Shown piece after piece: positions 611 to 24,039 of a stretch of 25,565 nucleotides of DNA (its first letter is position 1; each line of letters starts with the position of its first letter). The notes beneath the pieces were generated by a model. That model had not been told where the DNA came from and ran no database searches. It worked only from the letters and a program-made list of their open reading frames with translations. A program made the position numbers and the translations under genes. Source of the stretch: Paenibacillus sp. oral taxon 786 str. D14 (GTDB taxonomy: Bacteria; Bacillota; Bacilli; Paenibacillales; Paenibacillaceae); NCBI RefSeq assembly GCF_000159955.1, contig NZ_GG695989.1, positions 6,291 through 31,855 of the forward strand, in the 5' to 3' direction.

Positions 611-1729
611 ATGAAAATTACAGCGGTAAATGTGTTACATGTAAAGCCAAGATTCACCTTTGTAAAAATAGCAACAGATGAAGGGATCACCGGTTGGGGA
701 GAAGCCGTTGTGGAAGGAATGTCTCGTACGGTAGAGACGGCGCTTCAAGAGTTGAAGGAGTTTTTAATCGGGGAGGATCCAACAAGGATTGAATTTTTGT
801 GGCAAGCGATGTACCGAGGTTTGTTCTATCGGGGCGGTCCTGTTCTGTGCAGCGCGATAAGCGGTGTGGATCAGGCACTGTGGGACATACTAGGCAAGTC
901 GTTAAACGTGCCAGTCTATCAACTTCTTGGCGGTTCCGTGCGAAGTCGCATACGCATGTATAAGCATGTGATTGGGGATACAACGGAAGAAGCGGTGCAA
1001 AGCGCCAAACAGGCAGTGGCAGAAGGATTCACGATGGTCAAAGCAGGTTTAGAAGCCAAGCCGCGTTTTGTGGAAGGTCCGGCATTTATTGCTGCTCAAG
1101 TAGAACGGATGGAAGCCATTCGTGAGGCGATTGGTCCGCATATCGACTTTGCCATTGATTTCCATGGGAGGGTTAGTCCGACATTTGCGATCCAACTGGC
1201 CAAACGGTTTGAGAAGCTTGATCTATTGTTTATTGAAGAGCCTTGTTTGCCTGAAAATGTGGACGCGATGGTAACTGTTGCTCGTTCTACATCCATTCCG
1301 ATTGCAACAGGCGAACGTTTATATACGAAATGGGGATTTCGGGAATTACTGGAAAAACAAGCTGCGGCAATCGTGCAGCCTGATCTTGCACATTGCGGAG
1401 GCATTTCCGAGGGAAGACGCATTGCAGCGATGGCGGAAGTGTATTATGCCGGTTTTGCGCCGCACAATCCGTTAGGCCCGATCAACCTGGCAGCCAGTCT
1501 TCAGGTTTCCGCTCATGCCGCCAACTTCGTGGCTCAGGAGCATGTGACATTAGGGGAGGGGTACTTGAAGAAGCCGTTTGAGGTCAACGAAGGATATATT
1601 GAACTGTCAGATCAGCCAGGACTAGGGATTGAAGTGGATGAAATTCAGTTGAAAGACATGATGTATGAAGGGAATTGGCGCTCCCCTCGATGGTTCCACG
1701 ACGATGACGGCTCAGTAGCAGATTGGTAG
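611..1729 (+). CDS. dgoD: Galactonate dehydratase-like enolase-superfamily enzyme
   Basis: The 372-residue protein belongs to the mandelate racemase/muconate lactonizing group. It resembles E. coli D-galactonate dehydratase along its full length, including the FYRGG segment and the W-R-P/N-x-x-W-like tail. The expected metal and catalytic residues are visible: D183 and H185 in DFHGR, E209 in FIEEP, E235 in TGER, H285 in APHNPLGP and E310 in QEH. They fall at the same numbers as in DgoD. The family reaction is dehydration of a sugar acid to a 2-keto-3-deoxy acid in the cytoplasm, with Mg2+. The ATG at 611 follows an AAAGGA-type site (about 594-599). A sulfatase starts 23 bases after the stop, so the two are probably cotranscribed. 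Substrate is inferred: closely related dehydratases act on other aldonates, and no kinase or aldolase for the product is in this window. Confidence 0.8.
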   Translation: MKITAVNVLHVKPRFTFVKIATDEGITGWGEAVVEGMSRTVETALQELKEFLIGEDPTRIEFLWQAMYRGLFYRGGPVLCSAISGVDQALWDILGKSLNVPVYQLLGGSVRSRIRMYKHVIGDTTEEAVQSAKQAVAEGFTMVKAGLEAKPRFVEGPAFIAAQVERMEAIREAIGPHIDFAIDFHGRVSPTFAIQLAKRFEKLDLLFIEEPCLPENVDAMVTVARSTSIPIATGERLYTKWGFRELLEKQAAAIVQPDLAHCGGISEGRRIAAMAEVYYAGFAPHNPLGPINLAASLQVSAHAANFVAQEHVTLGEGYLKKPFEVNEGYIELSDQPGLGIEVDEIQLKDMMYEGNWRSPRWFHDDDGSVADW

Positions 1730-1752
1730 ATAGGAGGAGGGGAAATGATAAG

Positions 1753-3291
1753 ATGAACAAAACAGAGAGACCGAATATTTTATTTATTCATACAGATCAA
1801 CAGCGGGCAGATTCGTTAGGATGTTATGGAAATACAGTGATACGAACGCCGAATCTGGATCAGCTGGCTGCATCGGGTACGTTGTTTGAAAATGCTCACT
1901 GTACACATCCGCTGTGTATGCCTTCACGTGCAACACTGCTTACGGGCAGATACATGCACGCCCACCGTTTATATCGCAATGGGATCCCGCTAAGCCAGCA
2001 AGAGCAGACCATTGCCCATTTATTAAGTAAGTCCGGGTACGCAACAGGTTTGATTGGTAAAGCTCACTTTACGCCATACAAAGGAGATCCCAAAGTCAAT
2101 CCGGAGTCGGTGCAAATCAATAATGGTGTTGCACCAGAGGAATGCTGGGCGTACTGGCGGCAATTTGAGGGGCCTTATTACGGATTTGATCATGTACAGA
2201 TGAGTATGGGACACGGTGATTACGGGATGAAGGGCGGCCATTACGGTTTATGGGTTCATGAGCAGCATCCAGACAAGGTGCCTCTCTTTGATCAGGACAT
2301 TCATGGAGAGCCATCTGATGGTGTATATCGTAGCTGGAAGTCGGCTGTGCCGCTGGAGATTCATTCGTCCACATGGACGACAAACAAAGCGATCGAGTTC
2401 ATCAAACAAAACAAGGATCGTCCGTTCTATGCGTGGATTGGATATCAGGAACCGCATGAGCCGTTTAATCCGCCAAGACCATATTGTGATATGTACGACC
2501 CACAGGAGATTCTCTTGCCTGTGGGTCGTGATGGAGAGTGGGGAAGTGAATCGCCAGAGCATGTACAATATTATTTGAATCGAGGAAAATGGAAGGATAT
2601 TCGTGAGGAGAAGGTTCGGGAAATTATTGCGCATTATTATGGCTGCGTTAGTATGATCGATGATTGTATTGGTCGCTTGATGAAGACACTGGAGGAAGAG
2701 GGGCTGGCAGACAACACGATTATCATATTTACTTCTGATCATGGGGAGTGGCTTGGTGATCATGGACTATGGTTGAAGGGAGCGGTCCATGCAAGAGGGT
2801 TAACGCGCATTCCTTTGATGATCAAGTGGCCGGGTACGGCAGTAAGTGGCAGACGTGTGTCCAATGTGGCCAGTCTAATTGATGTTATGCCGACATTGCT
2901 TGATGCAGCAGGGGCAGAAATTCCATATGGTGTGCAAGGAACGTCGTTGCGCAGTGTTTTGGCAGGTGAACAAGACAAAGTGAGGGATTATGCTCTGATT
3001 GAACATCGGCACGAACCGTATCATCTCAACATTCAACTTGAGAAAGAAGAGTTGGTCATCAATAAAGGAACAGAAGAATGGCATATGAAAACGATTGTGA
3101 CCGACCGCTACAGGTTGAGCTACATTCCGTCAGCCCAATACGGTGAGTTGTACGATCATCAAACAGATCCGGATGAGCTGATTAACTTATGGGATAAGTT
3201 TCCGGAATTGCGTGTTCAGCTGCAGCTGCAACTGTTGGATAGCTTGATCGAAACCGAAGAAGTATTGCCAAGGCGCATCTGGCAAGTTTAA
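1753..3291 (+). CDS. Cys-type sulfatase, cytoplasmic (sulfatase 1)
   Basis: This 512-residue protein is a type I sulfatase of the alkaline phosphatase superfamily. The N-terminal metal motif is HTDQQRADSLG (D15). The maturation motif is C55-M-P-S-R59, in which the Cys would be converted to formylglycine. The second metal motif is TSDHG (D329, H330). The start is the ATG at 1753, seven to ten bases after AGGAGGAGGGG; an in-frame TTG at 1723 overlaps the previous gene and lacks a good site. There is no signal peptide: the chain begins directly with the core beta strand, so it should act in the cytoplasm on imported sulfated sugars. It is clearly more distant from the other two sulfatases here than they are from each other. 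It needs a maturase (anSME or FGE), which is not encoded in this window. The exact sulfate ester cannot be told from sequence. Confidence 0.9.
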   Translation: MNKTERPNILFIHTDQQRADSLGCYGNTVIRTPNLDQLAASGTLFENAHCTHPLCMPSRATLLTGRYMHAHRLYRNGIPLSQQEQTIAHLLSKSGYATGLIGKAHFTPYKGDPKVNPESVQINNGVAPEECWAYWRQFEGPYYGFDHVQMSMGHGDYGMKGGHYGLWVHEQHPDKVPLFDQDIHGEPSDGVYRSWKSAVPLEIHSSTWTTNKAIEFIKQNKDRPFYAWIGYQEPHEPFNPPRPYCDMYDPQEILLPVGRDGEWGSESPEHVQYYLNRGKWKDIREEKVREIIAHYYGCVSMIDDCIGRLMKTLEEEGLADNTIIIFTSDHGEWLGDHGLWLKGAVHARGLTRIPLMIKWPGTAVSGRRVSNVASLIDVMPTLLDAAGAEIPYGVQGTSLRSVLAGEQDKVRDYALIEHRHEPYHLNIQLEKEELVINKGTEEWHMKTIVTDRYRLSYIPSAQYGELYDHQTDPDELINLWDKFPELRVQLQLQLLDSLIETEEVLPRRIWQV

Positions 3292-3565: not shown

Positions 3566-5125
3566 TTATTGTTGTCGCGTACATTGCGTGATTCCCCCAT
3601 CAGCTTGAAGTGTATCGGCAACCTTACTCCAATTGTCAGCTTGATCGAGGATGAATTTATAGACTTGATTCATATTCGCTTGCTTTAATCCGCGATAGTC
3701 AGCAAGCGCTCCCAAACTCTGCTTCCAACTTTCAAGCTTGGACAGCATTTCTTCCTTCTGAGCGGCATACTTCGGATTATCGAACAGATTATGCTGCTCG
3801 TAAGGGTCGCTGAGCAAATCGTAAAGCTCTCCTTCTACTAGTGGCAGGTCGAAGAACGGTGAGTATTTCAAGTAATGGTCTCCATAAAGCTTCTCATGGA
3901 TCGATTCTTGCTCCGGATAGATTGTCAGCTTCCATTGGTGATCGCGGATCATGAGTGCTGGCTCTCTGTGAAGAGAACCACAGAAGTATTGGCTATGGGC
4001 TTCTGTTCGATGCTCCTTCGATTCACCGCGGCATACGGGCAGCAAGCTTTTTCCCTGGACCTCTTCCGGTACTGCAATTCCTGCAGCATCCAATATAGTA
4101 GGCAGAATATCTATAATTTCTGCAAACGTATCGAGTCGCATGCCGCCGTTTACATTTTGTGGCAGCTTTACTAATAACGGAATTCGAACGACAGGCTCAT
4201 ACATGTGTCCCCATTTCTCCACGAAACCATGCTCCCCCATCATCGAGCCATGATCTGAGGTGAAGATAATCAAGGAGTCATCATAAAGCTCCAGTTCCTT
4301 CAATCTGGCGATCACTTTTCCAATGCGATCATCAACATGGGTGACCAATCCATAATAGCTGGCTAAGCTTTTACGGTAATCTTCTTCGGTCAGTTTGTCA
4401 AAGCCACGCACTTTGTGAAAATACCGATGGGTGATCGGTTTATCATCGAGTGATCTGCCTGCGTTTGGCGGAAGCGGCATTTGTGCTGGATCATACATTT
4501 CAGAGTATGGTTTTGTTGGCATGTATGGTGTATGTGGGTCATGCAAGGATAGATGATGGAATATCGGTTTATCACTTCCCGGAATTTCTGATATGCGACG
4601 AATATAATCTTCTGTTAAGCGGGAGCATGGTGTTTGATCGGGATGGGTCGGGCTTTCTCCGTGGATGACTAAAGGAATATCGCCTTCATTTTTTTTGTAG
4701 CTGGACTTTTTTCGCATTTCGGGATCTTTAATGCCGAGAAAACTTGTATAAGGATCGCCATATCCACTTTGAAATTCCTCGAACCCAATTTCTTCAGCGG
4801 AGCGATGAACATGAAGCTTACCAAAGAGCGTTGTTGTATAACCGTTTTGGCGAAGTAAATCAGGGAGAGGCTTTTCATCGTCAATCATAAGCATCGCATT
4901 ATCCAAAACACCATTGCTGATCGGATTTCTGCCTGTCATCATGCTTGCTCTGGCAGGTACGCACATCGGGCAATTGGTATAGGCGTTCTCAAATATGACG
5001 GCATCTTTAGACAGGTTGTCAAGATGAGGGGTTTTCACAATGGAGTTTCCCATATAACCAAGACTGTCTGCTCTGAGCTCATCGCACATTAGAAAAAAAA
5101 CGTGTGGTCGTTTGTTTGTTTGCAA
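3566..5125 (-). CDS. Cys-type sulfatase, cytoplasmic (sulfatase 2)
   Basis: This 519-residue type I sulfatase shows the N-terminal metal motif MCDELRADSLG, the maturation motif C55-V-P-A-R59 and the second metal motif TSDHG (D291, H292), followed by EHGFVEKWG. I chose the TTG at 5125 because AAGGAG sits eight bases before it; the in-frame GTG at 5134 overlaps that site. The resulting start (MQTNKRPHVFF) also matches that of sulfatase 3. No signal peptide is present, so it is predicted to be cytoplasmic. It is a close paralogue of the protein at 22489, sharing long blocks such as TEEDYRKS-ASYYGL-THVDDR, so the two probably handle related substrates or positions of sulfation. It is transcribed away from the ABC importer operon and shares that operon's control region. 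A terminator follows at 3504-3538. The substrate is unknown. Confidence 0.9.
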   Translation of the reverse strand: MQTNKRPHVFFLMCDELRADSLGYMGNSIVKTPHLDNLSKDAVIFENAYTNCPMCVPARASMMTGRNPISNGVLDNAMLMIDDEKPLPDLLRQNGYTTTLFGKLHVHRSAEEIGFEEFQSGYGDPYTSFLGIKDPEMRKKSSYKKNEGDIPLVIHGESPTHPDQTPCSRLTEDYIRRISEIPGSDKPIFHHLSLHDPHTPYMPTKPYSEMYDPAQMPLPPNAGRSLDDKPITHRYFHKVRGFDKLTEEDYRKSLASYYGLVTHVDDRIGKVIARLKELELYDDSLIIFTSDHGSMMGEHGFVEKWGHMYEPVVRIPLLVKLPQNVNGGMRLDTFAEIIDILPTILDAAGIAVPEEVQGKSLLPVCRGESKEHRTEAHSQYFCGSLHREPALMIRDHQWKLTIYPEQESIHEKLYGDHYLKYSPFFDLPLVEGELYDLLSDPYEQHNLFDNPKYAAQKEEMLSKLESWKQSLGALADYRGLKQANMNQVYKFILDQADNWSKVADTLQADGGITQCTRQQ

Positions 5126-5190
5126 GTGAATCACTCCTTATTTAAATAGTATTACATTAAACCTACATCCAATTTTAAATATAGTCAATT

Positions 5191-5776: not shown

Positions 5777-6676
5777 ATGAAAACAAAAAGAAAGATCACG
5801 CTTAGAGACAATTTGGTCGGGTATTCCTTTATTTTGCCTGCATTAATCGGATTCATGTTATTTATGGCTTATCCACTGTTTAACTCTTTATATATAAGCT
5901 TCATGGATTGGAACATGTTCAAAGGGGCTGAAGGATCTACATTTATTGGTCTTGAAAATTATAAAGAGGCTTTTGATAATGAATATTTTCGAATAGGTTT
6001 TGTCAACAACATCTTGATTGTGATCATGGCAGTCCCAATTTTATTGTTTCTGGCTTTGGTAATCGCTTCTTTGCTCAATACGAAAATCATGGGTAGAGGT
6101 GTGCTGAGAGCGATGTACTTTGTGCCGTATATCACGACAATTACTGCAGCAGCTTTAGTTTTTTCGGCTATCTTTCATCCCGAATTTGGACCAGTCAATG
6201 CATTATTGCAATCTCTTGGTGTCGATCCAGTACCTGGATGGTCAACTAGCGTGAAATGGGCCTTGCCTACGATAGCATTATTCTGGATCTGGAAAAATGT
6301 TGGCTACTGTATCGTGATCTTTTTGGCTGGGCTACAAGGGATTTCTCGCACTTATTATGAGGCGGCATCCATCGACGGCGCCAATAAACTGCAACAGTTT
6401 TTCAAGATCACCGTGCCCATGATTTCACCTACTACATTTTTCCTGGTGATTACTTCTGTGATTTCTTCATTCCAGATTTTCGCTGAAGTAATGGTGATGA
6501 CTAATGGCGGACCGGGTACTTCAACGGTGACTATGGTCTTTCATATTTATGATACCGCATTCAAACAATACAATATGGGCTATGCTTCAGCGGTATCTTG
6601 GTTGTTCTTCATTATGGTTGTCATCATTACGATGATTCAGTGGATTGGGCAAAAATACTGGGTGAAATATGTGTAG
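5777..6676 (+). CDS. Sugar ABC importer permease, MalF/UgpA type
   Basis: This 299-residue integral membrane protein belongs to the binding-protein-dependent transport permease family. About six hydrophobic segments are visible, the first at residues 14-36 (the FILPALIGFMLFMAYPLFNS segment). The cytoplasmic EAA loop that docks the ATPase is at 195-201 (EAASIDG) and is followed by the expected FFKITVPMI. The ending (GQKYWVKYV) is typical of this subunit. The ATG follows GGGAGGA. It is the first intact gene of a three-gene importer unit: the partner permease begins 12 bases after its stop, then the binding protein. No ATPase is encoded nearby, so a shared MsmX/UgpC-like ATPase is presumed. The cargo is inferred from context to be an oligosaccharide, possibly sulfated. 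Confidence 0.92.
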   Translation: MKTKRKITLRDNLVGYSFILPALIGFMLFMAYPLFNSLYISFMDWNMFKGAEGSTFIGLENYKEAFDNEYFRIGFVNNILIVIMAVPILLFLALVIASLLNTKIMGRGVLRAMYFVPYITTITAAALVFSAIFHPEFGPVNALLQSLGVDPVPGWSTSVKWALPTIALFWIWKNVGYCIVIFLAGLQGISRTYYEAASIDGANKLQQFFKITVPMISPTTFFLVITSVISSFQIFAEVMVMTNGGPGTSTVTMVFHIYDTAFKQYNMGYASAVSWLFFIMVVIITMIQWIGQKYWVKYV

Positions 6677-6688: not shown

Positions 6689-7519
6689 ATGAATATTCGC
6701 AGGGAAGGGCTTTCCATGCTCATTTTAACGTTAATGTTAGCTGTGTTTGGTGTCTTGATGGTTTTTCCATTGGCTTGGATGATGTCAGCTTCGCTAAAGT
6801 ACGAAAGTGAAGTGTTCAAAATGCCAATTGAATGGATACCCTCCAAGATTAATGTAAGCAATTATATCACGGCGATGACAGAATTTCCATTTCTGAATTG
6901 GTATATGAATACGGCCTTGGTTACCTTGTATATTGTTTGTCTCGTTTTATCTGTAAGCACCATTGCCGGATATGCATTTGCGAAGCTGGAGTTTAAAGGG
7001 AAAGATGTAATTTTTATGATATTTATCGCTACGATGATGATACCAGTCGAAGTGCGGATCATTCCACAGTTTATGATCTTTAAGTCACTCGGTCTGATCA
7101 ATAATGTGATAAGTGTCGCATTACCATGGATGTTTAATGCTTTTTCTATCTTCTTGATGCGTCAATTTTTCACATCCATTCCTAATGATCTGCTTCAGGC
7201 AGCAAGAATCGATGGTTGTAATGAGTATAGTACTTTTTTTCGGATTGTGTTGCCACTAGCCAAGTCACAGATTACCGCATTATTTATTTTGGCATTTACG
7301 TGGGGATGGAACGAATATTTAAGCCCGTTGATTTATATCAGTGATGTGAACAATCAAGTGCTGAGTGTAGGGATTGCCAGTTTCAAGGGAGAGTATTCTA
7401 CGAACTTCGCTGTACAGATGGCTGGTGCAACAATGGCGTTAGTTCCGATTATCATTGTGTATTTGTTTGCCCAGAGACATTTTGTTGAAGGGATCGCCCT
7501 CTCTGGCGTGAAAGGGTAA
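6689..7519 (+). CDS. Sugar ABC importer permease, MalG/UgpE type
   Basis: This 276-residue inner-membrane permease is the usual length for the family. The first helix is at about 9-30, the second at 72-95 (ending in AGYAFAKLEF), and the EAA loop is at 170-176 (QAARIDG) followed by FFRIVLPLAKS. It ends in the family's GVKG tail. Its AGGGAGGG ribosome site overlaps the stop codon of the first permease, so the two are translationally close and surely form one heterodimer. Its C-terminal half is the best internal guide to what was deleted from the relic at 41-586, which shares the GEYS...AGA-M-LVPIIIV pattern. Confidence 0.92.
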   Translation: MNIRREGLSMLILTLMLAVFGVLMVFPLAWMMSASLKYESEVFKMPIEWIPSKINVSNYITAMTEFPFLNWYMNTALVTLYIVCLVLSVSTIAGYAFAKLEFKGKDVIFMIFIATMMIPVEVRIIPQFMIFKSLGLINNVISVALPWMFNAFSIFLMRQFFTSIPNDLLQAARIDGCNEYSTFFRIVLPLAKSQITALFILAFTWGWNEYLSPLIYISDVNNQVLSVGIASFKGEYSTNFAVQMAGATMALVPIIIVYLFAQRHFVEGIALSGVKG

Positions 7520-7593
7520 TTTTCGCTATGTGATGTGGTTATTAAGCGGGCAAAGCTGCTTAATGATAAATATGATAAAAGGGGAGAATGAAA

Positions 7594-10252: not shown

Positions 10253-10263
10253 GGGGACAGCAC

Positions 10264-16000: not shown

Positions 16001-19000
16001 ATGCTATACAACCATTACCTAGGCAATATTGATCATCCGGAATCGCTTAATCCGAGCCTTATCTCTGACAGTAACGGCACACCGACTTTAGGCAAGTACG
16101 ACAGTCTGATGAATCGTCCGACGAATAGCATGGGCTATACGATTTTGTGGCACGAACCTGCTCCAGACTGGGCGGTGGCACAATATGGTGAGACATTGAG
16201 GGACGGAATTACGACGTTTACGAAGTATGATATCAATAATCCTGAAATTCGAAATATTTGGGAGAAAGTATTGGAAAATACAGGTCCAATTACTTCTGGT
16301 AAGCCATATACAGAGCTTGGGTATTTACTTGCGAACGAGCCGCACTGGTTCCTTGAAAAAGGGCATTGGGCTGTTCCCAAGAAGGTTAACGGTCAGGAGG
16401 GGATTTCTGATCTCGCTCTTCAAGCGTTTGCTCAATGGCTAAGTGAACGTCATGGAACGGTAAGCCAGATGAATGCAATCTGGGGAACGACTTTCTCCAG
16501 CTTCAATGAGGCAGCCGCCACGGTCATACCGCTGGAAAAATCGTATAAAGGGACGCCGATTGGATACGATGTAAGCCTGTTCAATATGGAGAGAGGAACA
16601 GAGTGGCTGACTTTCCTACATGATCAGGTGAAATTGAATGATCCGGGAGCGAAAACACATATCAAGATCATGCCGGACTTGTTTGCCGAAGGGAACAGGA
16701 CGCATGGAATTGATTTTGAGAAACTTACCGAGATGGTTGAAATCATTGGTGATGATGCGAAAACGCGCAAACTGAATGTCAGAGCAACAGGATCTTCAGA
16801 GGATTGGGCCGATCACTATGCCTATTATTGGAAAGAGCTTGGCATGTCGTATGACTTCATGCATTCGGTCAGCCCGGATAAAGCACATGTGAATTCGGAA
16901 GTACATTTTCTTTCCACTACGGCATATCGAGATTTATATATGAAGCCCGAATATGTTCGGTCAACGTATTGGTTGGCAACGATTCTAGGGATGGATGCAG
17001 GTTTTACCTGGTTTTGGGGGAGAAATCCCGATGGTTCCATCGAGAATCGCTTGATGACCACCAGCGTGCAAGGATTGTTGGAATCTTATCCGGGTTCCGT
17101 TGCCCAGCAGCCTCGCGTAGCTAATGAATTGAGCAAGACGATGATGGACTTGAATGCATTCTCTGAGGAAATTGTGAAGTTTCAAACTCAGAAAAAGCCG
17201 ATTCGGATATTCTACTCTGAAACGTCGGCGATCAATGATGAACATTACATGGATGATTTATTCGACTTGTATGAGTCAATGTACTTTGACGGAGTTCCGA
17301 TTGGTTTTGCAACAAAGAATATAATAAAGAAACAGCCAAATTCAGATTGGGATGTCATCGTTGTTTACGAGACGCAGGAGGTAACTGACGAAGAATTTGA
17401 CGTTTTGCAGGATTACCTTGATCAGGGTGGGACAGTGATTATCGATAACGCCAGCTTGAAGTTCAATGAGTATAAACAACCACGTGCAGCGTCACTGAAG
17501 GCAAGCAATGGTACATTGATTGTGAAAGCAGACCATGATGTGCAAAGCATGGCAACGAGCGCGTTCGGGATCGTGTCTGCCAATGGGCATATGCCTCCTG
17601 TTGTTGTCACAGAAACGAATGGGAACACGAAGAAGGGAGCGATGTGGCGCGTTGTCCCGAACGGAGAGAATCGTTATGTCATGACTATTTTGAATCTTGG
17701 GAAAAATCAGGCAACTCTTGATGTGTCGATGGTTAATGGCATGAATATAACAGTTACTGATTTGTTGACTGGAAAGCGGATGGGCAATTCGTTTTCATTG
17801 GACCCTGAAGGTGTAATGCTGCTAGAAATCAAAGCGCTTCCTCGGACAAACCACGGGCATGAACCTGGCGCAGATACTTCAAATTCTTCTGAAGTGGAGG
17901 TTGTCAATAAGCCTGTAGTGAATGAGGGAAAGATTGAAGTTTCAGTCGATAAAGGAAAGAATAAATTGATATTACCAGCAAACGCTAAAGAAATAAATGG
18001 AACAAACATGCTGCAATTGACAAATGAAAGCTTTAAGGTGATCATACCAGCGAATGTGCTTGAATCGTTAAAATTGAAGGCAACAGAAGACATGCTTATT
18101 AATGCGGGCATCACATTTGAATTCAAACCGATGGATGAAGCAGAGAAGAGAACGCTCTTAACAAATGCTTCAAAAAAGAATCATGTTAACCTGAACCCCG
18201 TGACAGGGATATATCATTTTTCTTTATCTCTAAACGATCAGAAAGGAGATTTGATCTCATCAGCAACTATCGAAGAACCGATACGCATTGAGTTGGTGGT
18301 TTCCCCGAAAGCAGACTCGAATTTACTGGGGATGTACTTTGTTGGTGAAGATGGTACCTTGGAGTACGTTGGAGGAGAGATCATCGATGGGAAATTGGTG
18401 GCTAAAGTCAACCGTTTAGGCAAATATGTAGGTTTGGAGTACAAAAAAGTATACACAGACGTAAGTGAAACATACTGGGCTGCAGATGCAATTCAGAGTG
18501 TGACAGCTAAGCATATCATTATCGGAGTTGAAGATGACAAATATGAGCCACATCGTAGCGTGACACGAGCGGAATTTGCAGCAATGCTTGTCCGTATGTT
18601 AGGTTTATCCGTACAGTATACAGCATCATCGTCTCCATTCCAAGATGTCAGTGAAACAGATTGGTTTGCAGATGAAGTTGCAGCAGCCTATGCAACAGGC
18701 ATTGTTCATGGTAAAAATGATGGAATTTTTATGCCAAATGCCGCCATCACGAGACAGGAGATGGCTGTTATGATCATTCGTGCTTATGAAGTTGCACATT
18801 CGACAGGAGTCTCAACAGAAAATCTGGAGTTCAGCTTTGCAGATATGGACCAAATTAACGAATGGACAAAGCCATCCATCGCTGCTGCCATTGAGCTTGG
18901 ATTGTTGCGAGGTCGAACGAATAATCTGTTTGCCCCGCTCGACGAAACTACTAGAGCGGAAAGTGCACAAGTAATTGCTAGGCTACTTATGTTTTTGTAA
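13058..19000 (+). CDS. Surface-anchored multidomain glycoside hydrolase with SLH domains
   Basis: This 1980-residue secreted protein starts after AGAGGAGGACC. Domains in order: signal peptide cleaved near 23 (PVDA); a beta-rich module at about 70-200, again at 325-465 and at 600-745 (shared pattern IPSGVKLQ-F, I-V-G-IQDSR, NG-F-L-SD-S-TL, EIT-GS); FIVAR-like helical domains at 206-290 and 471-553; an Ig-like region at 746-820; a helical linker at about 828-945; then a catalytic core at about 945-1500 resembling clan GH-A enzymes such as GH42 or GH50. The likely acid/base is E1094 (ANEPHW) and the likely nucleophile E1281 (VNSEVHF). A GH42-middle-like domain follows (ETQEVTDEEFDVLQDYLDQG). SLH domains begin near 1799, 1861 and 1927, so it should sit on the cell wall. 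The exact family and substrate are not resolved; the context suggests a sulfated, possibly galactose-containing, polymer. Confidence 0.85.
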   Translation: MKKIISTLLCVVLLASMAFPVDAIEEPTITDAQQLADYLRTKITPGGDAAKIKTADGGNTVQVSTPVTLDVPFTIPSGVKLQQFVKMNINETIIVQGKIQDSRGAEYRADGLVGTGTGTVVIDTYGSYFQQGIEVVGSNGLFVLDSDSSVTLLSNNRLEITTGTVTVPAGKSITSDILKGIIVAPGANFNINGTVEVPIDWGDTGVDKTALIEAIADANNFKASVKVSVDSSDVSNSKKWVTQDVMDSYSHAISLALEVRNDSAATQSDVDNAIDVLEAATDVFLAAMQDGTNDEAAVEIETVADLAEFLKTITVDDSKVMISGNAALLYEDIEINRDFIIPSGVKLQTFANIKTDATITVYGTVQDSRTPENRTDGLIETGSGSFVFHTGGSYYQQGTEVIGPNGIFKLGSDASLTLFKNNHAEITSGSVTLAKQINSGVIEKITVAVGAIFHADSSKIGEGVIYIPVGVNQTKLGETIKLAEANLNATLVSNDGADIDADMYWVTQLDHDTFALAIQQAKATKNGPDATEEELGLALDDLGAAMDHFIAAKKQGLIPVAEITTAEQLLSVINSFKEGEEDVARQLSDEVVNGVTLDVIEVFKPVTIKRNITVPENVRLRFTAQMTVNAKITVKGQLQDFRDEGFIIGNGIVGAAGVGSVVFEPGSALYIKGKGETIGNTGILKIEDGSTVTLFAKNRMEITKGSAIVLKSLITSLTNELTVGASAVLTVIGSIPKEIAVRSEGTYIDASILNTEEKLGIEGTTVTSSDETIVTASVQNGRINLLVNTKDEGNAVVTVSTADNKTASIQISVNHGAIEEKTIKKYGALSTSELKAMIQYKISELETLISQAESKKLDAEREKGALWFAKEFDKYADWDEQNISVNQKMFDNISWYRPGGKTAEELAKELPEFERMEIIAMLDTAIAELTEVINGTMVRRPVRLVDWNGISLQGSNFYSNGKPVFLHDYFSKPLDVPTDDQMLYNHYLGNIDHPESLNPSLISDSNGTPTLGKYDSLMNRPTNSMGYTILWHEPAPDWAVAQYGETLRDGITTFTKYDINNPEIRNIWEKVLENTGPITSGKPYTELGYLLANEPHWFLEKGHWAVPKKVNGQEGISDLALQAFAQWLSERHGTVSQMNAIWGTTFSSFNEAAATVIPLEKSYKGTPIGYDVSLFNMERGTEWLTFLHDQVKLNDPGAKTHIKIMPDLFAEGNRTHGIDFEKLTEMVEIIGDDAKTRKLNVRATGSSEDWADHYAYYWKELGMSYDFMHSVSPDKAHVNSEVHFLSTTAYRDLYMKPEYVRSTYWLATILGMDAGFTWFWGRNPDGSIENRLMTTSVQGLLESYPGSVAQQPRVANELSKTMMDLNAFSEEIVKFQTQKKPIRIFYSETSAINDEHYMDDLFDLYESMYFDGVPIGFATKNIIKKQPNSDWDVIVVYETQEVTDEEFDVLQDYLDQGGTVIIDNASLKFNEYKQPRAASLKASNGTLIVKADHDVQSMATSAFGIVSANGHMPPVVVTETNGNTKKGAMWRVVPNGENRYVMTILNLGKNQATLDVSMVNGMNITVTDLLTGKRMGNSFSLDPEGVMLLEIKALPRTNHGHEPGADTSNSSEVEVVNKPVVNEGKIEVSVDKGKNKLILPANAKEINGTNMLQLTNESFKVIIPANVLESLKLKATEDMLINAGITFEFKPMDEAEKRTLLTNASKKNHVNLNPVTGIYHFSLSLNDQKGDLISSATIEEPIRIELVVSPKADSNLLGMYFVGEDGTLEYVGGEIIDGKLVAKVNRLGKYVGLEYKKVYTDVSETYWAADAIQSVTAKHIIIGVEDDKYEPHRSVTRAEFAAMLVRMLGLSVQYTASSSPFQDVSETDWFADEVAAAYATGIVHGKNDGIFMPNAAITRQEMAVMIIRAYEVAHSTGVSTENLEFSFADMDQINEWTKPSIAAAIELGLLRGRTNNLFAPLDETTRAESAQVIARLLMFL

Positions 19001-19033
19001 GTATGCTATGAATGAGAAGTTAACTGATAGAAT

Positions 19034-19065
19034 ACCGTCGGGAATTCACATCCTGACGGTTTTTT
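19034..19065 (+). terminator. Terminator after SLH enzyme gene
   Basis: A ten-pair stem (ACCGTCGGGA / TCCTGACGGT, one G-U pair) with a seven-base loop is followed by TTTTTT. It lies 34 bases after the stop codon. Confidence 0.9.
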
Positions 19066-19069
19066 GTGG

Positions 19070-19189
19070 AAAGCAAGGATCTTCATGCAAGAAAACTATC
19101 GAATCGTGGTAGACATCGACATGGAGAAGTTCTTCGACCGAATCGATCACAGCTGCCTAATGGAAAAAGTCGTGCTGAAACGTGCATAG
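19070..19189 (+). pseudogene. Fragment of group II intron reverse transcriptase
   Basis: In the frame ending at the TAG of 19187-19189 the sequence reads ...FMQENYRIVVDIDMEKFFDR... followed by IDHSCLMEKV. This is the conserved reverse-transcriptase block of bacterial group II intron proteins holding the first catalytic aspartates (VDIDxxKFFD). Only about 40 codons survive, with no start codon, ribosome site, maturase region or intron RNA domain V seen nearby. It begins immediately after the enzyme's terminator, as if an intron had inserted there and been largely deleted. 19190-19253 holds nothing further that I recognise. Confidence 0.75.
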
Positions 19190-19253
19190 GTCTACTCTAT
19201 TTGGCAACCGGGCATTTTGTTCCGAAGTTGCGGCGAAGCTGGATCTCAGATCA

Positions 19254-20057
19254 TTATCGATAAAGCTGCTGTCTGTATTCTTTGGGAGAGAGTCCTGTTA
19301 CTTGCTTGAACACCCGACTGAAATAATAAGGATTCGGGTATTGAAGCATTTCGCTGATCTGTGAAATATTCAGTGAATCTGATTGCATGAGTTCGATGGC
19401 TTTTTGTACCTTCAATTTTTTGTAATATTGGTTGATTGTTGTGCCTGTTGTGGATTTAAACAATCGTCCCAAGTACGTATAGTTCATATTGAGTTCATCT
19501 GCAATGGCTTGGCTGTCGAAGGGACGATCCAGCTGGGACTGCAGACAACGGACGATGCTGGTGACGATCATATTCGAACGATGTTCGATATTGGCACTCA
19601 GGTGCTGGTACATTAGATCACAAAGAAGTCCGTACAAGTGTCCATTGATTCGTTCTTGATATAAAGGTTCTGCGGACTGATAGATCCGGTGCATTTTATT
19701 TAAGGTATGTGTCAATTGTTCAGGTGCAGCGACTGTTACATGCTTAGGGAGAAAAAGCTGGTTCTCTGAGTGCTTGAACTCAGAGGGAGCAAAGGAAACC
19801 CAGAACCATTTTGATCCAGGTGGCGTTACTTTTTTCCCCCATTGATGACATCCATTTTTGAGAAAAAAAATCTGGTTTTTCGTTACAGTATAGTCGATAT
19901 CCTCCTCACATATTTCAACCTTCCCTTGTAACACAAAAATCATCGTGTTGATGTTCAATATGCGATCCACATGATACCAAGGCTGTTTTGTTTCAAAAAT
20001 CCCGATTGTAAGCAGCGTAGGAAGCTCATTTCGATTGATAAAAATTTGATGCTCCAT
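19254..20057 (-). CDS. AraC-family transcriptional regulator
   Basis: The 267-residue protein has an N-terminal cupin-like sensing domain (about 1-150, containing QGKVEICEEDIDY) and a C-terminal pair of helix-turn-helix motifs of the AraC/XylS type. The first is around IADELNMNYTYLGRLFKSTT, the second around ISEMLQYPNPYYFSRVFK, ending GLSPKEYRQQ. The ATG at 20057 is preferred because GGAG lies eight bases before it; a GTG at 20066 overlaps that site. The gene is divergent from the FAD oxidoreductase and sulfatase 3, with about 160 bases between, the classic arrangement for a local activator. It likely senses a sugar or breakdown product; which genes it controls beyond its neighbours is inference. 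Confidence 0.92.
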   Translation of the reverse strand: MEHQIFINRNELPTLLTIGIFETKQPWYHVDRILNINTMIFVLQGKVEICEEDIDYTVTKNQIFFLKNGCHQWGKKVTPPGSKWFWVSFAPSEFKHSENQLFLPKHVTVAAPEQLTHTLNKMHRIYQSAEPLYQERINGHLYGLLCDLMYQHLSANIEHRSNMIVTSIVRCLQSQLDRPFDSQAIADELNMNYTYLGRLFKSTTGTTINQYYKKLKVQKAIELMQSDSLNISQISEMLQYPNPYYFSRVFKQVTGLSPKEYRQQLYR

Positions 20058-20109
20058 GAACAACACTCCATTTTTCCCATCTTATAAACAGTATACCAAA
20101 ATAGTTGAA

Positions 20110-20180
20110 ATAAGATATGTATTTTGCATTTATATGTATTTCATAAGTCTTTTGTAAAGGATATCTTATTGATATAAGAC
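20110..20180. promoter_or_regulatory. Candidate operators between AraC regulator and FAD gene
   Basis: ATAAGATAT (20110-20118) and its inverse ATATCTTAT (20161-20169) lie 42 bases apart. The latter also forms a short palindrome TCTTAT-TGAT-ATAAGA. A TATAAG at 20173-20178 could be a -10 box, but the best -35-like match (TTGTAA, 20152-20157) is only 15 bases away. These are suggested regulator sites only. Confidence 0.38.
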
Positions 20181-20219
20181 AAGAAGGTATTTTCGATAAA
20201 ATTGAAAGGAAGAAATATT

Positions 20220-22466
20220 ATGGAGTTCAAGAAAACGGTGGTCAAGTATGATCTGACAATTATAGGCGGAGGAATGCCCGGGGTTTGTGCTGCTGTGCAG
20301 GCTGCCCGACTAGGTTTGAAAGTTGCGCTCATTAATAACCGTGGTTATCTCGGAGGCAACGCAAGTCCTGAGAATCGAATTAACGTTGCAGGAGCAGATG
20401 GCGCGCAGGAATTTAATTTCTACGCCAGAGAATCAGGCATTATGGAAGAGCTTCGCTTGGAAAATTTATATCGAAATCCGCAAGGCAACGCCTATTTATG
20501 GGAAACGATACTACTCGATTTTGTCATGAAGGAAAAAAATATTGATTTGTATCTGAACACGAATATCGATAAGGTCGAAACCGATGGAGAAGGCAAAATC
20601 GTGTATGTATCAGGCTCGCAATCCGGGTCTGAAAAACGATTTGATTTTTATAGTCCTTATTTTCTCGATGATACGGGGGACGGGACTGTGGGCTATTTGG
20701 CGGGAGCGGAATATCGAACTGGACGGGAAGCAAAGTCGGAGTTCGGAGAGCGCATCGCGCCGGATGAAGCAGACGATCATGTTTTGCTTAGTACATTGTC
20801 TTGGTATACCAAGGATACTGGTCGCAAAGCGCGGTTTGTGATGCCCGAGTTTGCCAAGAGCCTGAAGGTGGAAGAAGCGCTGCAGCATCGGGAAATACCG
20901 GAAAGAAATCCAAACAGTACGCGATATGAAGGATATCGCATGCAATGGTTTTATGAAATTGGACATGGCAAGGATCAAATCGAGCAAAGTGAGGAAGTGA
21001 TGCAAAACCATAGAGAACTCGTTTACGGCATTTGGAATCATATCAAAAATAGCGGCAACTATGACTCTGACACGTTCGATCTGGAATATGTCAGCAGCAT
21101 TCCGGGCAAGCGGGAATCAAGAAGATTGATTGGCGATTACATCCTGACAGAACAAGATGTCGTGGAGCAGCATGATTTTGAGGATGCCATCGGCTATGGC
21201 GGATGGTCGATTGATCTTCATGCAATCGAAGGCTTTTTCTCCAAGGACATGACAACTAGACATTTCGTGCTGCAGGGTGTATATCCGATCCCATATCGGA
21301 GCTGTTATTCGAAAAATGTCAACAATCTGTTCGTAGCCAGCCGTTGTATGTCCACTTCCCATGTTGCTTTTGGCTCAACGCGGGTCATGGCAACCTTGGC
21401 GGTGCTTGGCCAATCGTGTGCGGCTGCGGCTTATCTTTGCAAAAAATATCAAGTTCAACCAAGAGATATTTATGAGCACCACATGCATGAGCTTCAACAA
21501 TTGCTTTTGAAAAATGACCAGTATATTATTGGCAAGAAAAATGAAGACCCAGAGGATGTATGCCGAACAGCACGTTTTTCAGCAAGCTCAGTGCAACGCT
21601 GCAGTTTAGAGAACATGGATCGCGCTGTGACATTGCAAGAAAGTCTCGCATTGATTGTTCCGGTCAAGGATTCGCTTGAGTATATAGCTCTGCGTCTTCA
21701 TAGTGAGACGGATACTAGCTTGCGTTACACTGTGTACACTGCAGCCAAGCAACAAAACTATGGACCACAGCAAAAGTTATTCGAGGGGTCTGTAGCGATT
21801 TCGGCAGGCAACAATTTTAACTGGGTTCAATTACCAGTACCTTGCAAAACAGAGTCTGGAAAGCTGTTTATTGAGTTCGAGGTCAATGATGCGCTCCAAC
21901 TGGGTCTAAGTAATGATGATATCAATGGCTTGTTTTTCTTGAAAAAAATATTATTGAATAGACGAACGACATTTTGCGATATTAATACGTTGGAAGTAAA
22001 GAAGGAAATGTGGAGTAGAGATAGTGGACTGCCGTGCTTCCTGCTTGGACCTGAGCAAGATATTTATGGCGCTGAAAATTTGAACAATGGATACGCCCGG
22101 AACCACGGGTTGCCGAATTTGTGGCTGTCTGCTGTTACGACTGGCGAGGAAACCGTGCATGTACGTTTTGATGGCGAGAAAAAGCTGAGCAAGCTGCAAA
22201 TCGTATTTGACTCCAATTTGAATTTTCATTACGACAATCTTGAGATTTATCACGATTTTACAGTGTTCCCGACTCTGATTCGAGACTATACAGTGTATGC
22301 GAAAGGGAAAAATGGCTTTGAAGAAATTGTCCAGGTTACAGGAAATCACCAAAGAGTCAACAAGTTGACATTTGATGTGATTACGACAAATGAACTTAAG
22401 CTTGTGTTCCACCGAACGAATGGAGCGAAACGGATCGGTGTGTATGAGATCAGAGCCTATGCATAA
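20220..22466 (+). CDS. FAD-dependent oxidoreductase with C-terminal galactose-binding-like domain
   Basis: This 748-residue protein opens with a dinucleotide-binding beta-alpha-beta fold: YDLTIIGGGMPGVCAA (glycines at 16-18 and 21), then ARLGLKVALINNRGYLGGNAS. This is the pattern of the FAD-dependent oxidoreductase family often seen in glycan-use clusters (PF12831 type). The C-terminal roughly 150 residues (from about 600) are beta-rich, with NLNNGYARN and a LEIYHDFTVFPTLIRDYTVY stretch resembling F5/8-type or NPCBM-like carbohydrate-binding folds. There is no signal peptide. The ATG at 20220 follows AAAGGA; an in-frame TTG at 20202 precedes that site and is rejected. Sulfatase 3 starts 22 bases after its stop, so they form one operon facing away from the AraC gene. 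Sugar or sugar-acid oxidation is plausible, but the reaction is unknown. Confidence 0.85.
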   Translation: MEFKKTVVKYDLTIIGGGMPGVCAAVQAARLGLKVALINNRGYLGGNASPENRINVAGADGAQEFNFYARESGIMEELRLENLYRNPQGNAYLWETILLDFVMKEKNIDLYLNTNIDKVETDGEGKIVYVSGSQSGSEKRFDFYSPYFLDDTGDGTVGYLAGAEYRTGREAKSEFGERIAPDEADDHVLLSTLSWYTKDTGRKARFVMPEFAKSLKVEEALQHREIPERNPNSTRYEGYRMQWFYEIGHGKDQIEQSEEVMQNHRELVYGIWNHIKNSGNYDSDTFDLEYVSSIPGKRESRRLIGDYILTEQDVVEQHDFEDAIGYGGWSIDLHAIEGFFSKDMTTRHFVLQGVYPIPYRSCYSKNVNNLFVASRCMSTSHVAFGSTRVMATLAVLGQSCAAAAYLCKKYQVQPRDIYEHHMHELQQLLLKNDQYIIGKKNEDPEDVCRTARFSASSVQRCSLENMDRAVTLQESLALIVPVKDSLEYIALRLHSETDTSLRYTVYTAAKQQNYGPQQKLFEGSVAISAGNNFNWVQLPVPCKTESGKLFIEFEVNDALQLGLSNDDINGLFFLKKILLNRRTTFCDINTLEVKKEMWSRDSGLPCFLLGPEQDIYGAENLNNGYARNHGLPNLWLSAVTTGEETVHVRFDGEKKLSKLQIVFDSNLNFHYDNLEIYHDFTVFPTLIRDYTVYAKGKNGFEEIVQVTGNHQRVNKLTFDVITTNELKLVFHRTNGAKRIGVYEIRAYA

Positions 22467-22488
22467 TCTATGAAAGGAGAATGAATCC

Positions 22489-24039
22489 ATGATGCCCCGA
22501 AAACCACCTGTATTTTTTATTATGACAGATGAATTGCGAGCAGATACGTTTGGGTTCAGAGGCCATCCGATCGTGAGAACGCCTCACCTGGATGCCCTTG
22601 CGAAGGATGCGGCTGTTTTTACGAATGCATATACGAATTGTCCGATGTGTGCGCCTGCTCGAGTGAGCTTGGCTACGGGGAGATACGGATTAAGCCATGG
22701 TGTGCTGGACAACGCTTTTGCACCAGTCGAAGATGAGGTTTCTTTATACCAAACGATGCATGACCATGGTTATCGCACGATCAACTATGGCAAAACACAT
22801 TTTAATACGCCCGGCAGCTTCGGCTTTGAGGAAAATTATCCGCGTGGTTTATTTGACGATGGCGGTGTCAGTGTGTTCGGAGTAACGGATCGCGAGCTGT
22901 TAAATCGAAGTGTTTACAAGAAGAATGAGGGAGAGGTTTCCTTGATCATCCATGGAAAAAATCCACAGAAGCCGGAGGAAACAGCCGATTCTCGTGTTAC
23001 CAGAGCATATATAGACAGATTGGATGAATTGAAAGACAGTGAGCGACCATTATTTTACCGATTGTCGATCATCGATCCTCACACGCCGTATTTTCCAACG
23101 GAACCGTATGCCTCGATGTATCACCCTGACGATATGCCTTTGCCTGCGACATGGAACGAAGATTTGACGTCGAAGCCGCTCATGCATCGTTATTATTACC
23201 GTGCACGGGGGTTCGATCGTTTGACAGAGGAAGATTATCGTAAAAGTATAGCCAGCTATTACGGCTTGATTACCCATGTGGATGATCGGGTGGGGCAAGT
23301 CATCGCTCGCTTAAAGGAGCTAGATCTTTATGATAATTCTATCATTGTTTTTACCTCCGATCATGGCTCAATGATGGGCGAACATGGCTTTATCGAGAAG
23401 TGGGGCATTATGTATGAAGAAGTGTGCAGAATCCCCTTGATGATCAAGTTTCCCAGATCGAAGTATCAAGGAAGTTACGACAGCTTTGCTGAAATTGTGG
23501 ATATTATGCCTACGATTATGGATGCAACAGGTATTGAAGTGCCAGCATGCGTGCAGGGGACATCCTTGATGCCGTTGCTGAGGGGGGACGAAGTTGCTGT
23601 CAAAACGGAGGTATTCGGACACATCTTCACTGGTGGTTTGCAGGATGAACCTGCTCTGATGATTCGAAGCGGGCAATGGAAGCTAACTTTGTATCCTGGT
23701 CAAGAACAGCTGCATGATAAGCTGCTGAATGACCATTATTTGAAATATACGCCAATGTTTCTTGAGGATGTCGTGGAGGGCGAGCTGTATCATCTGGAGG
23801 ATGATGCCCAGGAAGTTCACAACCTGTTCCATGACCCGGCATATCGAAAGATTCGGGATCAGCTGATCTCCCGGCTGGACAGCTGGCGAAATGAGCTCGG
23901 GAGAATTGCTAATTATCGCGGGATGGAACGATCGGAAAAAAATACGGTAAACAGTTATCATTTGATGCAGGCGGACAATCTTGCCAAGATGCAGCGCTTG
24001 ATGAGCGCCGAGGGGACGATTACGCAGTTGAACAGGTAA
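22489..24039 (+). CDS. Cys-type sulfatase, cytoplasmic (sulfatase 3)
   Basis: This 516-residue type I sulfatase has the metal motif MTDELRADTFG, the maturation motif C54-A-P-A-R58 and TSDHG at D291-H292. The last falls at the same number as in sulfatase 2 (3566-5125), of which it is a close full-length paralogue; both end in a similar ITQ tail. The ATG at 22489 lies eight bases after AAAGGAG; a second ATG directly follows it. No signal peptide is present. It is cotranscribed with the FAD oxidoreductase, linking desulfation to an oxidation step. Activation of the Cys needs a maturase from elsewhere in the genome. No clear terminator follows. Confidence 0.92.
   Translation: MMPRKPPVFFIMTDELRADTFGFRGHPIVRTPHLDALAKDAAVFTNAYTNCPMCAPARVSLATGRYGLSHGVLDNAFAPVEDEVSLYQTMHDHGYRTINYGKTHFNTPGSFGFEENYPRGLFDDGGVSVFGVTDRELLNRSVYKKNEGEVSLIIHGKNPQKPEETADSRVTRAYIDRLDELKDSERPLFYRLSIIDPHTPYFPTEPYASMYHPDDMPLPATWNEDLTSKPLMHRYYYRARGFDRLTEEDYRKSIASYYGLITHVDDRVGQVIARLKELDLYDNSIIVFTSDHGSMMGEHGFIEKWGIMYEEVCRIPLMIKFPRSKYQGSYDSFAEIVDIMPTIMDATGIEVPACVQGTSLMPLLRGDEVAVKTEVFGHIFTGGLQDEPALMIRSGQWKLTLYPGQEQLHDKLLNDHYLKYTPMFLEDVVEGELYHLEDDAQEVHNLFHDPAYRKIRDQLISRLDSWRNELGRIANYRGMERSEKNTVNSYHLMQADNLAKMQRLMSAEGTITQLNR

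What the first reader, a model, noticed from the sequence alone, without database searches (positions are those of the whole stretch)
611..24039. Candidate Gram-positive utilization locus for a sulfated glycan
Seen: three Cys-type sulfatases, a DgoD-like dehydratase, two complete sugar importers, an SLH-anchored glycosidase-like giant, an FAD oxidoreductase and an AraC regulator, with little else between them. Established: sulfatase-rich glycan loci are mostly described in Bacteroidota and Planctomycetota. Inference: a coherent Bacillota system of surface cutting, import and intracellular desulfation, perhaps for a sulfated galactan since the dehydratase resembles D-galactonate dehydratase.
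Basis: partly seen in the sequence, partly recalled or inferred. Interest (0 to 1): 0.72.

Follow-up and report, generated by a model that had tools for sequence, protein, structure and literature searches.

The report
Gram-positive seaweed carrageenan-feeding gene cluster
A Gram-positive bacterium, probably a Paenibacillus, carries a gene cluster that most likely lets it cut carrageenan, the sulfated red-seaweed gel, at its surface, import the pieces and strip their sulfate inside the cell, a job studied so far mainly in Gram-negative bacteria.

Summary
The "giant" can be named: residues 829-1592 match two solved GH167 enzymes over their length (E 3e-166, 4e-165) and keep both catalytic glutamates. 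Characterised GH167 enzymes release beta-neocarrabiose from carrageenan (PMC6923384). Order and strand of 3566-24039 recur, with extra genes between, at 55-85% identity in a genome of Paenibacillus algicola's length, a published carrageenan grower; GH82 iota-carrageenase, GH127, GH2 and a DauA-like dehydrogenase lie within about 55 kb. P. soyae and a Blautia hold related but less similar sets. So the substrate is probably carrageenan. The dehydratase is weak evidence, and dgoD-sulfA (611-3291) looks like a separate unit. A puzzle remains: sulfatases near GH167 have a leader in 86 of 92 scored Gram-negative cases but 0 of 18 Bacillota ones, yet known GH167 enzymes act only after desulfation. 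Either the surface enzyme tolerates sulfate or it uses unsulfated stretches. Nothing was assayed, and the window's own genome is not held.

The parts
611..1729 (+). DgoD-like enolase-superfamily dehydratase; probably part of a separate unit with 1723-3291
   Evidence: NCBIfam NF010624 479 bits (cut-off 311); closest PDB 3rr1 putative D-galactonate dehydratase; nearest kin in relatives lie away from GH167
1723..3291 (+). S1-type sulfatase A, C-M-P-S-R motif, no leader seen; overlaps dgoD by 7 bases
   Evidence: PF00884 E 2e-60; sequence; leader test
3566..5134 (-). S1-type sulfatase B, C-V-P-A-R motif, no leader seen
   Evidence: PF00884 E 5e-51; 80% and 77% relatives in the P. algicola-sized genome and P. 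soyae; leader test
5777..6676 (+). importer 1 permease a
   Evidence: PF00528; 82% in same order; 67% in Blautia
6689..7519 (+). importer 1 permease b
   Evidence: PF00528; 80%, 68% in Blautia
7588..8988 (+). importer 1 lipoprotein sugar-binding protein
   Evidence: PF01547; lipobox; 75%, 59% in Blautia
9359..10252 (+). importer 2 permease a
   Evidence: PF00528; 85%
10189..11154 (+). importer 2 permease b (true start probably inside this frame)
   Evidence: PF00528, weak, 27.2 bits against cut-off 26.4; 83%
11202..12860 (+). importer 2 lipoprotein sugar-binding protein (552 aa)
   Evidence: PF01547; lipobox; 72%
13058..19000 (+). surface GH167 enzyme: signal peptide, three beta-solenoid-like repeats, GH167 catalytic part, SLH repeats
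13136..15301 (+). region of three N-terminal repeats (residues about 27-206, 297-500, 561-748) of unknown function
   Evidence: pairwise 31-44% identity; model of repeat 2 pLDDT 88, no PDB fold match at E <= 0.001; 4 hits in the homologue search, all GH167-SLH proteins, the window's own included, but only proteins of similar length are searched
15542..17833 (+). GH167 catalytic part, residues 829-1592; acid/base E1094 (codon 16337-16339), nucleophile E1281 (codon 16898-16900)
   Evidence: phmmer to 6ptm and 9whd; both invariant in the 13 rows of A2; map to BovGH167 E295/E472 of PMC6923384 with a chain offset of 2 (counted by hand)
18446..18982 (+). SLH cell-surface anchor, residues about 1797-1975
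   Evidence: PF00395, three stretches; S-layer protein Sap structures
19034..19060 (+). terminator-like hairpin (10 pairs, then TTTTT) behind the GH167 gene
   Evidence: such sites as a class are not above chance in that stretch (3 found, 4.1 expected)
19254..20066 (-). AraC-family regulator, divergent from the FAD gene
   Evidence: PF00165/PF12833; 57% and 54% relatives at the same place beside the FAD gene in G212 and G051; only 29% in P. soyae
20202..22466 (+). FAD-dependent oxidoreductase with a CBM32-like C-terminal domain, no leader seen
   Evidence: PF12831; fold match of one part to CBM32 2xqx; 73% and 74% relatives; start of the protein
22489..24039 (+). S1-type sulfatase C, C-A-P-A-R motif, no leader seen, 22 bases after the FAD gene
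   Evidence: PF00884 E 4e-48; 75% and 74% relatives directly after the FAD gene; leader test

Best explanation
The locus 3566-24039 is the GH167 part of a Bacillota carrageenan-utilisation system. An SLH-anchored GH167 enzyme cuts beta-1,4 bonds of carrageenan or its oligosaccharides at the cell surface. Two ABC importers that borrow an ATPase take up the pieces. Cytosolic S1 sulfatases (after conversion of their Cys to formylglycine) and an FAD enzyme process them, under an AraC regulator. The endo-carrageenase, the anhydrogalactosidase and the anhydrogalactose pathway are expected elsewhere in the genome. Shown: gene content, GH167 membership by sequence, conserved order, absence of recognisable leaders on the sulfatases. 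Inferred: substrate, order of steps, role of the FAD enzyme and of each importer. The unit 611-3291 (dgoD-sulfA) is probably a neighbour that serves another sulfated galactan.
For: GH167 match to 6ptm and 9whd over the catalytic unit; both catalytic Glu kept. Known GH167 activity: release of beta-neocarrabiose (PMC6923384). Same order and strand of sulfB, importer 1, importer 2, GH167, AraC, FAD, sulfC at 55-85% in G212, with other genes between and GH127, a second GH167 and GH2 added. About 53 kb upstream of its GH167 gene lies GH82 (1h80 iota-carrageenase, E 1.4e-12), then GH127, an aldehyde dehydrogenase whose best PDB match is 6pnu/6pop (439 bits, next 336), both in the deposition list of the paper that solved DauA, a 2-keto-3-deoxygalactonate-type kinase and a KDPG-type aldolase. 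G212's contig is 4,475,055 bp, the published size of P. algicola HB172198, which grew on carrageenan as sole carbon source. P. soyae and Blautia regions hold GH127, GH2, sulfatases, ALDH, enolase and an aldolase-type gene.
Against: No endo-carrageenase, GH127 or anhydrogalactose gene is among the window frames scanned, and the window's genome is not held. P. soyae has GH167 but no GH82 match, its FAD gene is only 39% identical and not beside a sulfatase, and it has no close sulfC or AraC counterpart in the stretch; the Blautia genome has no FAD homologue at E <= 1e-50. So the FAD-sulfC part need not belong to carrageenan use. PsGH167 did not act on kappa- or iota-carrageenan, nor on kappa-neocarratetraose until a sulfatase had acted, which fits badly with a surface enzyme and cytosolic sulfatases. 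The tree holds no characterised GH167 in the window's set (names judged from titles). Remnants at both edges could mean decay. GH167 is rare: 3 of 394 Paenibacillaceae genomes at E <= 1e-100.
Confidence: 0.75

Rival explanations
1. The locus serves an agaran (agar or porphyran) rather than carrageenan; GH167 in this clade has changed specificity and the DgoD-like gene marks the true substrate.
For: The window's dgoD type (49%) recurs in P. soyae beside a sulfatase, an importer 2-like set (62/53/37%) and an SLH protein with a porphyranase-type domain, plus a GH16-SLH protein. P. algicola is also reported to have GH50 and GH86 and to grow on agar.
Against: No GH167 domain was found in that P. 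soyae neighbourhood (its SLH giant matches the window protein at about 31% over 310 residues), while the GH167 regions of G212, P. soyae and Blautia have GH127, an enolase of another clade and an ALDH (75% between the first two, 49% in Blautia). GH167 catalytic residues are unchanged.
Confidence: 0.1
2. The window joins two independent sulfated-galactan units, 611-3291 (agaran type) and 3566-24039 (carrageenan type), that are not co-regulated. This is compatible with the best explanation and concerns its left boundary only.
For: dgoD kin and GH167 lie apart in relatives: about 52 kb in P. soyae, megabases in G212 and G051. dgoD-sulfA and sulfB are convergent, and a permease remnant precedes dgoD.
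Against: Both units handle sulfated galactans and could be used together; D-galactose from carrageenan could also enter through galactonate (the De Ley-Doudoroff route is named for carrageenan growers in PMC6923384).
Confidence: 0.6
3. A decaying, non-functional locus: the intact frames are recent survivors.
For: Broken binding-protein and SLH remnants right of 24039, a permease remnant left of 611; GH167 is broken by a stop/frameshift in the PL2-23-sized genome.
Against: All thirteen genes of the window are intact frames over 23 kb, with catalytic motifs kept in the sulfatases and GH167, and the GH167 genes of G212, P. soyae and Blautia are open too.
Confidence: 0.08

Closest known systems
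Pseudoalteromonas CarPUL (PS47, U2A; Hettle et al. 2019, PMC6923384; passages and one section read)
   Same: GH167 exo-enzyme with S1 sulfatases; DauA-type dehydrogenase and 2-keto-3-deoxygalactonate route in relatives of the window
   Different: Gram-negative; the paper has the sulfatases act before GH167 and predicts a lipid anchor for GH167; it reports no GH127 or GH129; the window enzyme is SLH-anchored and its sulfatases lack leaders
Bacteroides ovatus CL02T12C04 GH167 (BovGH167, PDB 6ptm)
   Same: aligns over chain residues 38-771 with both catalytic Glu
   Different: the crystallised chain has no N-terminal repeats and no SLH; Bacteroidota PUL
Paenibacillus algicola HB172198 and Paenibacillus sp. 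YYML68 carrageenan use (PMC9227215, PMC9788395; passages read)
   Same: Paenibacillus; GH82 iota-carrageenase; growth on or degradation of carrageenan; a genome of P. algicola's length shares this locus; YYML68 has a 76% FAD homologue
   Different: neither paper is among the 14 that name GH167; PMC9227215 has no occurrence of sulfatase; no such locus appears in the passages seen
Marine GH167 loci with a sulfatase-FAD gene pair (L020, L021, L022, L065, L071 and others)
   Same: FAD homologue (E <= 1e-40) in 11 of 76 Gram-negative loci, directly beside a sulfatase in 8 of these 11
   Different: the FAD protein starts with a twin-arginine-like leader in 8 of the 11 (read by eye); the window's does not

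Membership tests
GH167 | sequence match over the whole catalytic unit | tested here: met
   829-1592 to 6ptm 38-771 and 831-1591 to 9whd 25-759
GH167 | acid/base and nucleophile Glu (BovGH167 E295, E472) | tested here: met
   E1094 and E1281, invariant in A2
GH167 | release of beta-neocarrabiose | not testable with these tools
   needs an assay
carrageenan utilisation locus (CarPUL-like) | carrageenan-active enzyme family with sulfatases and transport in one neighbourhood | tested here: met
   GH167, sulfatases, importers in the window
carrageenan utilisation locus (CarPUL-like) | endo-carrageenase (GH16/GH82/GH150) and anhydrogalactosidase (GH127/GH129) | tested here: not met
   not among the 16 window frames scanned; present near the homologous locus in G212. 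The rest of the window's genome could not be searched
carrageenan utilisation locus (CarPUL-like) | induction and growth on carrageenan | not testable with these tools
   growth reported for P. algicola, not for the source strain
PUL in the strict sense (SusC/SusD) | SusC/SusD pair | tested here: not met
   none among the frames scanned; ABC importers instead
S1 sulfatases | PF00884 with C-x-P-x-R for formylglycine | tested here: met
S1 sulfatases | subfamily (SulfAtlas S1_n) and substrate | tested here: inconclusive
   only A and C were compared with solved structures: best are 7oz8 choline-sulfatase and 4upi/4upl sulfatase family proteins; for C the exo-2S-iota-carrageenan sulfatase 6pt4 is third (157 bits against 182), for A it is far down; no NCBIfam cut-off reached by the three
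D-galactonate dehydratase (DgoD) | equivalog NF010624 | tested here: met
   479 bits, cut-off 311
enolase of GH167 loci (DauB-like; name recalled) | same clade as the enolase genes of GH167 loci | tested here: not met
   10 of 10 marine-locus genes matched by both queries score higher with the P. soyae gene than with the window's; two partial hits (L023, L025, 168 aa) matched the window's gene only

The most novel reading that the evidence does not exclude
Gram-positive carrageenan feeders have reversed the order of the known pathway. A surface GH167 cuts chains that still carry sulfate (a new specificity), sulfated oligosaccharides are imported, and all desulfation plus a cytosolic sulfatase-FAD oxidoreductase step, exported in Gram-negatives, happens inside the cell. 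The three N-terminal beta-solenoid repeats would be a new carrageenan-binding module.
Probability: 0.3. Interest if true: 0.68.

Novelty: new variant of a known kind. Interest (0 to 1): 0.55.

Why it matters
Carrageenan breakdown has been worked out in Gram-negative marine and gut bacteria. A Gram-positive version with its sulfatases inside the cell would show a second way to eat a sulfated gel, would expose a testable conflict in GH167 specificity, and would add a Blautia (a genus of gut Firmicutes; recalled) to the possible users of a common food additive. Ten searches of the open-access library listed no paper that by title or abstract describes such a locus. Of the 14 papers naming GH167 passages were read in two (PMC6923384, PMC13168452); the others were seen as listings only. 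One search returned nothing for the Zobellia carrageenan regulon, a published topic, so an empty search here is weak evidence, and most subscription journals are not held.

Tried and rejected
DgoD as the substrate marker: rejected after comparison with the enolases of GH167 loci. Searching with the full-length giant: in P. soyae 38 matches, 2 in the GH167 protein itself and 36 others to the C-terminal, SLH-bearing part of the profile, so a GH-only alignment A2 was used. Weak GH167-like matches (E 8e-44 to 2e-49) in 5 of 51 genomes of the P. soyae genus were not counted as GH167. Transfer from marine bacteria: a quick tree of 109 GH167 rows (one model, SH-aLRT only) puts the window with 11 other rows, among them P. 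soyae, Blautia and named Paenibacillus proteins (99), not inside a marine set; the second G212 copy and P0016/P0017 sit just outside (83), and the Vallitalea longa protein P0018 (Bacillota; recalled) falls elsewhere. No claim on direction is made. Fold of the N-terminal repeat: confident model, no PDB match at E <= 0.001. RNA families in the window: none at gathering score. Promoter-like sites in 18900-24300 were not above chance (8 found, 10.9 expected).

Sulfatase leader test: a simple hydrophobicity rule, not SignalP; 11 Gram-negative and 2 Bacillota rows without a recognised motif were dropped; the 18 Bacillota rows include a few sulfatases of neighbouring, non-GH167 parts of the stretches. 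Wider look in G212, G001 and G002: 40 rows, 39 distinct genes because one came twice, several already; 8 rows had no motif and were not scored; 0 of the 32 scored rows (31 distinct) had a leader; frames over 640 aa (LtaS length) were left out; 28 of G212's 30 places were fetched, the other two being frames of 629 and 654 aa; one start (581 aa frame) is uncertain. FAD gene near GH167: about 0.8 matches expected in 1.59 Mb of loci from 45 matches in 19 Gram-negative genomes (92.7 Mb), 11 loci seen; the genomes were partly picked because they have the gene, cut-offs differ a little (1e-50, 1e-40), and glycan genes cluster anyway, so this is no test of specificity. Formylglycine-generating enzyme: PF03781 also rings in 4 of 14 control genomes, Bacillus subtilis among them, so its presence says little.

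Full report
What is there. Thirteen intact genes fill 611-24039. Pfam and NCBIfam confirm three S1-type sulfatases with a Cys in C-x-P-x-R, one DgoD-like dehydratase, two permease-permease-binding-protein sets without an ATPase, a 1980-residue SLH protein, an AraC regulator and a PF12831 FAD oxidoreductase. Both ends of the window hold gene remnants.

The giant is a GH167 enzyme. Pfam saw only a weak GH42 hit, but residues 829-1592 match 6ptm and 9whd ('GH167 glycoside hydrolase') at E 3e-166 and 4e-165. The catalytic pair of BovGH167, E295 and E472, falls on E1094 (NEPHW) and E1281 (NSEVHF); the two-residue offset between chain and paper numbering was counted by hand from the printed alignment. 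Both are invariant in the 13 rows of A2. In PMC6923384 (passages and one section) GH167 releases beta-neocarrabiose from the non-reducing end and failed on kappa-neocarratetraose until a sulfatase had acted.

Conserved neighbourhood. A pattern scan of one genome for each of 84,980 species gave 189 GH167-encoding stretches, the best 80 kept as 78 loci. By title two are Bacillota (P. soyae L001, Blautia L002); most others are marine Bacteroidota, Gammaproteobacteria, Planctomycetota and Verrucomicrobiota. A protein search adds named Paenibacillus relatives (B01, BS8-2, P. ferrarius, P. agaridevorans, JSM ZJ436, NRS-1760) among its 20 hits. In Paenibacillaceae 3 of 394 genomes have GH167 at E <= 1e-100; in Lachnospiraceae 1 of 397, Blautia itself. 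In G212 (4,475,055 bp, the size of P. algicola HB172198) the order sulfB(-), perm1a 82%, perm1b 80%, SBP1 75%, perm2a 85%, perm2b 83%, SBP2 72%, GH167-SLH 55%, AraC(-) 57%, FAD 73%, sulfC 75% equals the window's, with about 16 kb of other genes (among them MurNAc-type ones) between sulfB and importer 1, and a regulator, GH127, two SBP2-like genes, a second GH167 and GH2 added. G051 (PL2-23-sized) keeps importer 1, AraC, FAD and sulfC together (perm 81 and 84, SBP1 75, AraC 54, FAD 74, sulfC 74%), but its GH167, far away, is broken.

Limits of the conservation. P. soyae has sulfB 77%, importer 2 (82/79/61%), GH167-SLH 59% and importer 1 (60/58/46%), but its FAD gene is 39% and followed by a GH43-like gene, its AraC gene 29%, and no close sulfC was seen there. 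Blautia has importer 1 at 59-68%, GH167 and weaker importer 2 and sulfatase relatives, and no FAD homologue at E <= 1e-50. GH167, the importers and sulfatases are thus the firmer core; AraC-FAD-sulfC is an add-on shared by the window, G212 and G051.

Pathway genes near GH167 in relatives. G212: GH82 at 206628-208064, about 53 kb before the GH167 gene (PDB 1h80, E 1.4e-12), GH127 81% to P. soyae's, an enolase 79%, aldehyde dehydrogenase 75%, kinase 52%, aldolase 60%, further sulfatases and GH2. The dehydrogenase's best structures are 6pnu/6pop (439 bits; next 336), in the deposition list of the DauA paper; they are labelled only 'Aldehyde dehydrogenase', so DauA is an inference. P. soyae and Blautia hold the same kinds of gene. 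Blautia's importer 1 is 59-68% identical to the window's, its GH167 domain 52%. GH82 of this type occurs in 1 of 394 Paenibacillaceae genomes, G212; P. soyae has none. P. algicola grew on carrageenan as sole carbon source (PMC9227215, passages), and Paenibacillus sp. YYML68 degrades iota-carrageenan, most likely through a GH82 enzyme (PMC9788395, passages).

Enolase-family genes in the Bacillota GH167 regions are 30-33% identical to the window's gene, and 10 of 10 marine-locus genes matched by both queries score higher with the P. soyae gene; two partial hits matched only the window's. The window's own type (49-51% in P. soyae and G051, 54-56% in G212) sits elsewhere, in P. soyae next to a sulfatase, an importer 2-like set, an SLH protein with a porphyranase domain, and further on a GH16-SLH protein. 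I take 611-3291 as a neighbouring unit.

A conflict of place. By a hydrophobic-leader rule, 86 of 92 scored sulfatases in the 76 non-Bacillota GH167 loci have a leader and 0 of 18 in the Bacillota stretches. A wider look at G001, G002 and G212 found none in 32 scored rows (exclusions under Tried and rejected). GH167 has a leader and SLH anchor in the window, and both G212 copies start with a leader-like stretch (by eye). FAD proteins in the 11 marine loci that have one begin with twin-arginine-like leaders in 8 (by eye); the window's does not. So desulfation and the FAD step appear to lie in the cytosol here, while GH167 stays outside. Given the known need for prior desulfation, the surface enzyme must tolerate sulfate, use beta-carrageenan or furcellaran-like stretches, or depend on an export route not seen here. 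Formylglycine-generating-enzyme homologues (PF03781) are in G001 and G051 but not in Blautia; G212 was not asked, controls such as Bacillus subtilis ring too, and an anaerobic maturase was not searched for.

FAD enzyme. AlphaFold model pLDDT 85; Foldseek pairs it with fumarate-reductase-type flavoproteins (low TM) and one part with the CBM32 of EndoD (TM 0.70 by target). It belongs to a very large family (7950 hits among the 7999 candidates scored), so it is not specific to carrageenan. Its place beside a sulfatase suggests that it oxidises the desulfated sugar; this is a guess.

Evolution. In a quick tree of 109 GH167 rows the window groups with 11 rows that include Paenibacillus and Blautia (99), apart from the marine sets.

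Verdict. Real, coherent from 3566 to 24039, and best read as a Gram-positive carrageenan locus; a new variant of a known kind. Confidence 0.75 for carrageenan, lower for each step.

Noticed in passing
L002:3-18552 (Blautia sp. Marseille-P3201T); L136:1110-19772: A Blautia (Lachnospiraceae) genome has GH127, GH2, GH167, sulfatases, both importer types, enolase, aldolase and ALDH, with an IS66 transposase and a recombinase close behind GH167: a candidate mobile carrageenan locus in a Firmicute.
   Followed up: partly
L135:3350-8884, L135:11963-15094: P. soyae has a second sulfated-galactan neighbourhood with an SLH protein carrying a porphyranase domain and a GH16-CBM9-SLH protein.
   Followed up: partly
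window 24315-25559 and 425-583: Remnants of a binding protein joined to SLH remnants with an in-frame stop, and of a permease tail: old breakpoints or decay.
   Followed up: partly
window 13136-15301: Three N-terminal repeats of a beta-solenoid-like module with no PDB fold match, seen only in GH167-SLH proteins in a length-limited search; possible new binding module.
   Followed up: partly
G051:C1:3385655-3387809: GH167 of the PL2-23-sized genome is split by a stop/frameshift although the FAD-sulfC-importer 1 unit elsewhere is intact.
   Followed up: no
protein P0021: A 1266-residue protein with GH167 similarity also carries precomputed sulfatase domains (PF00884, PF16347): a possible sulfatase-GH167 fusion.
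   Followed up: no
L103:7381-9315 and L133:4074-6110: G212 has two GH127-type genes near GH167, candidate 3,6-anhydrogalactosidases.
   Followed up: no
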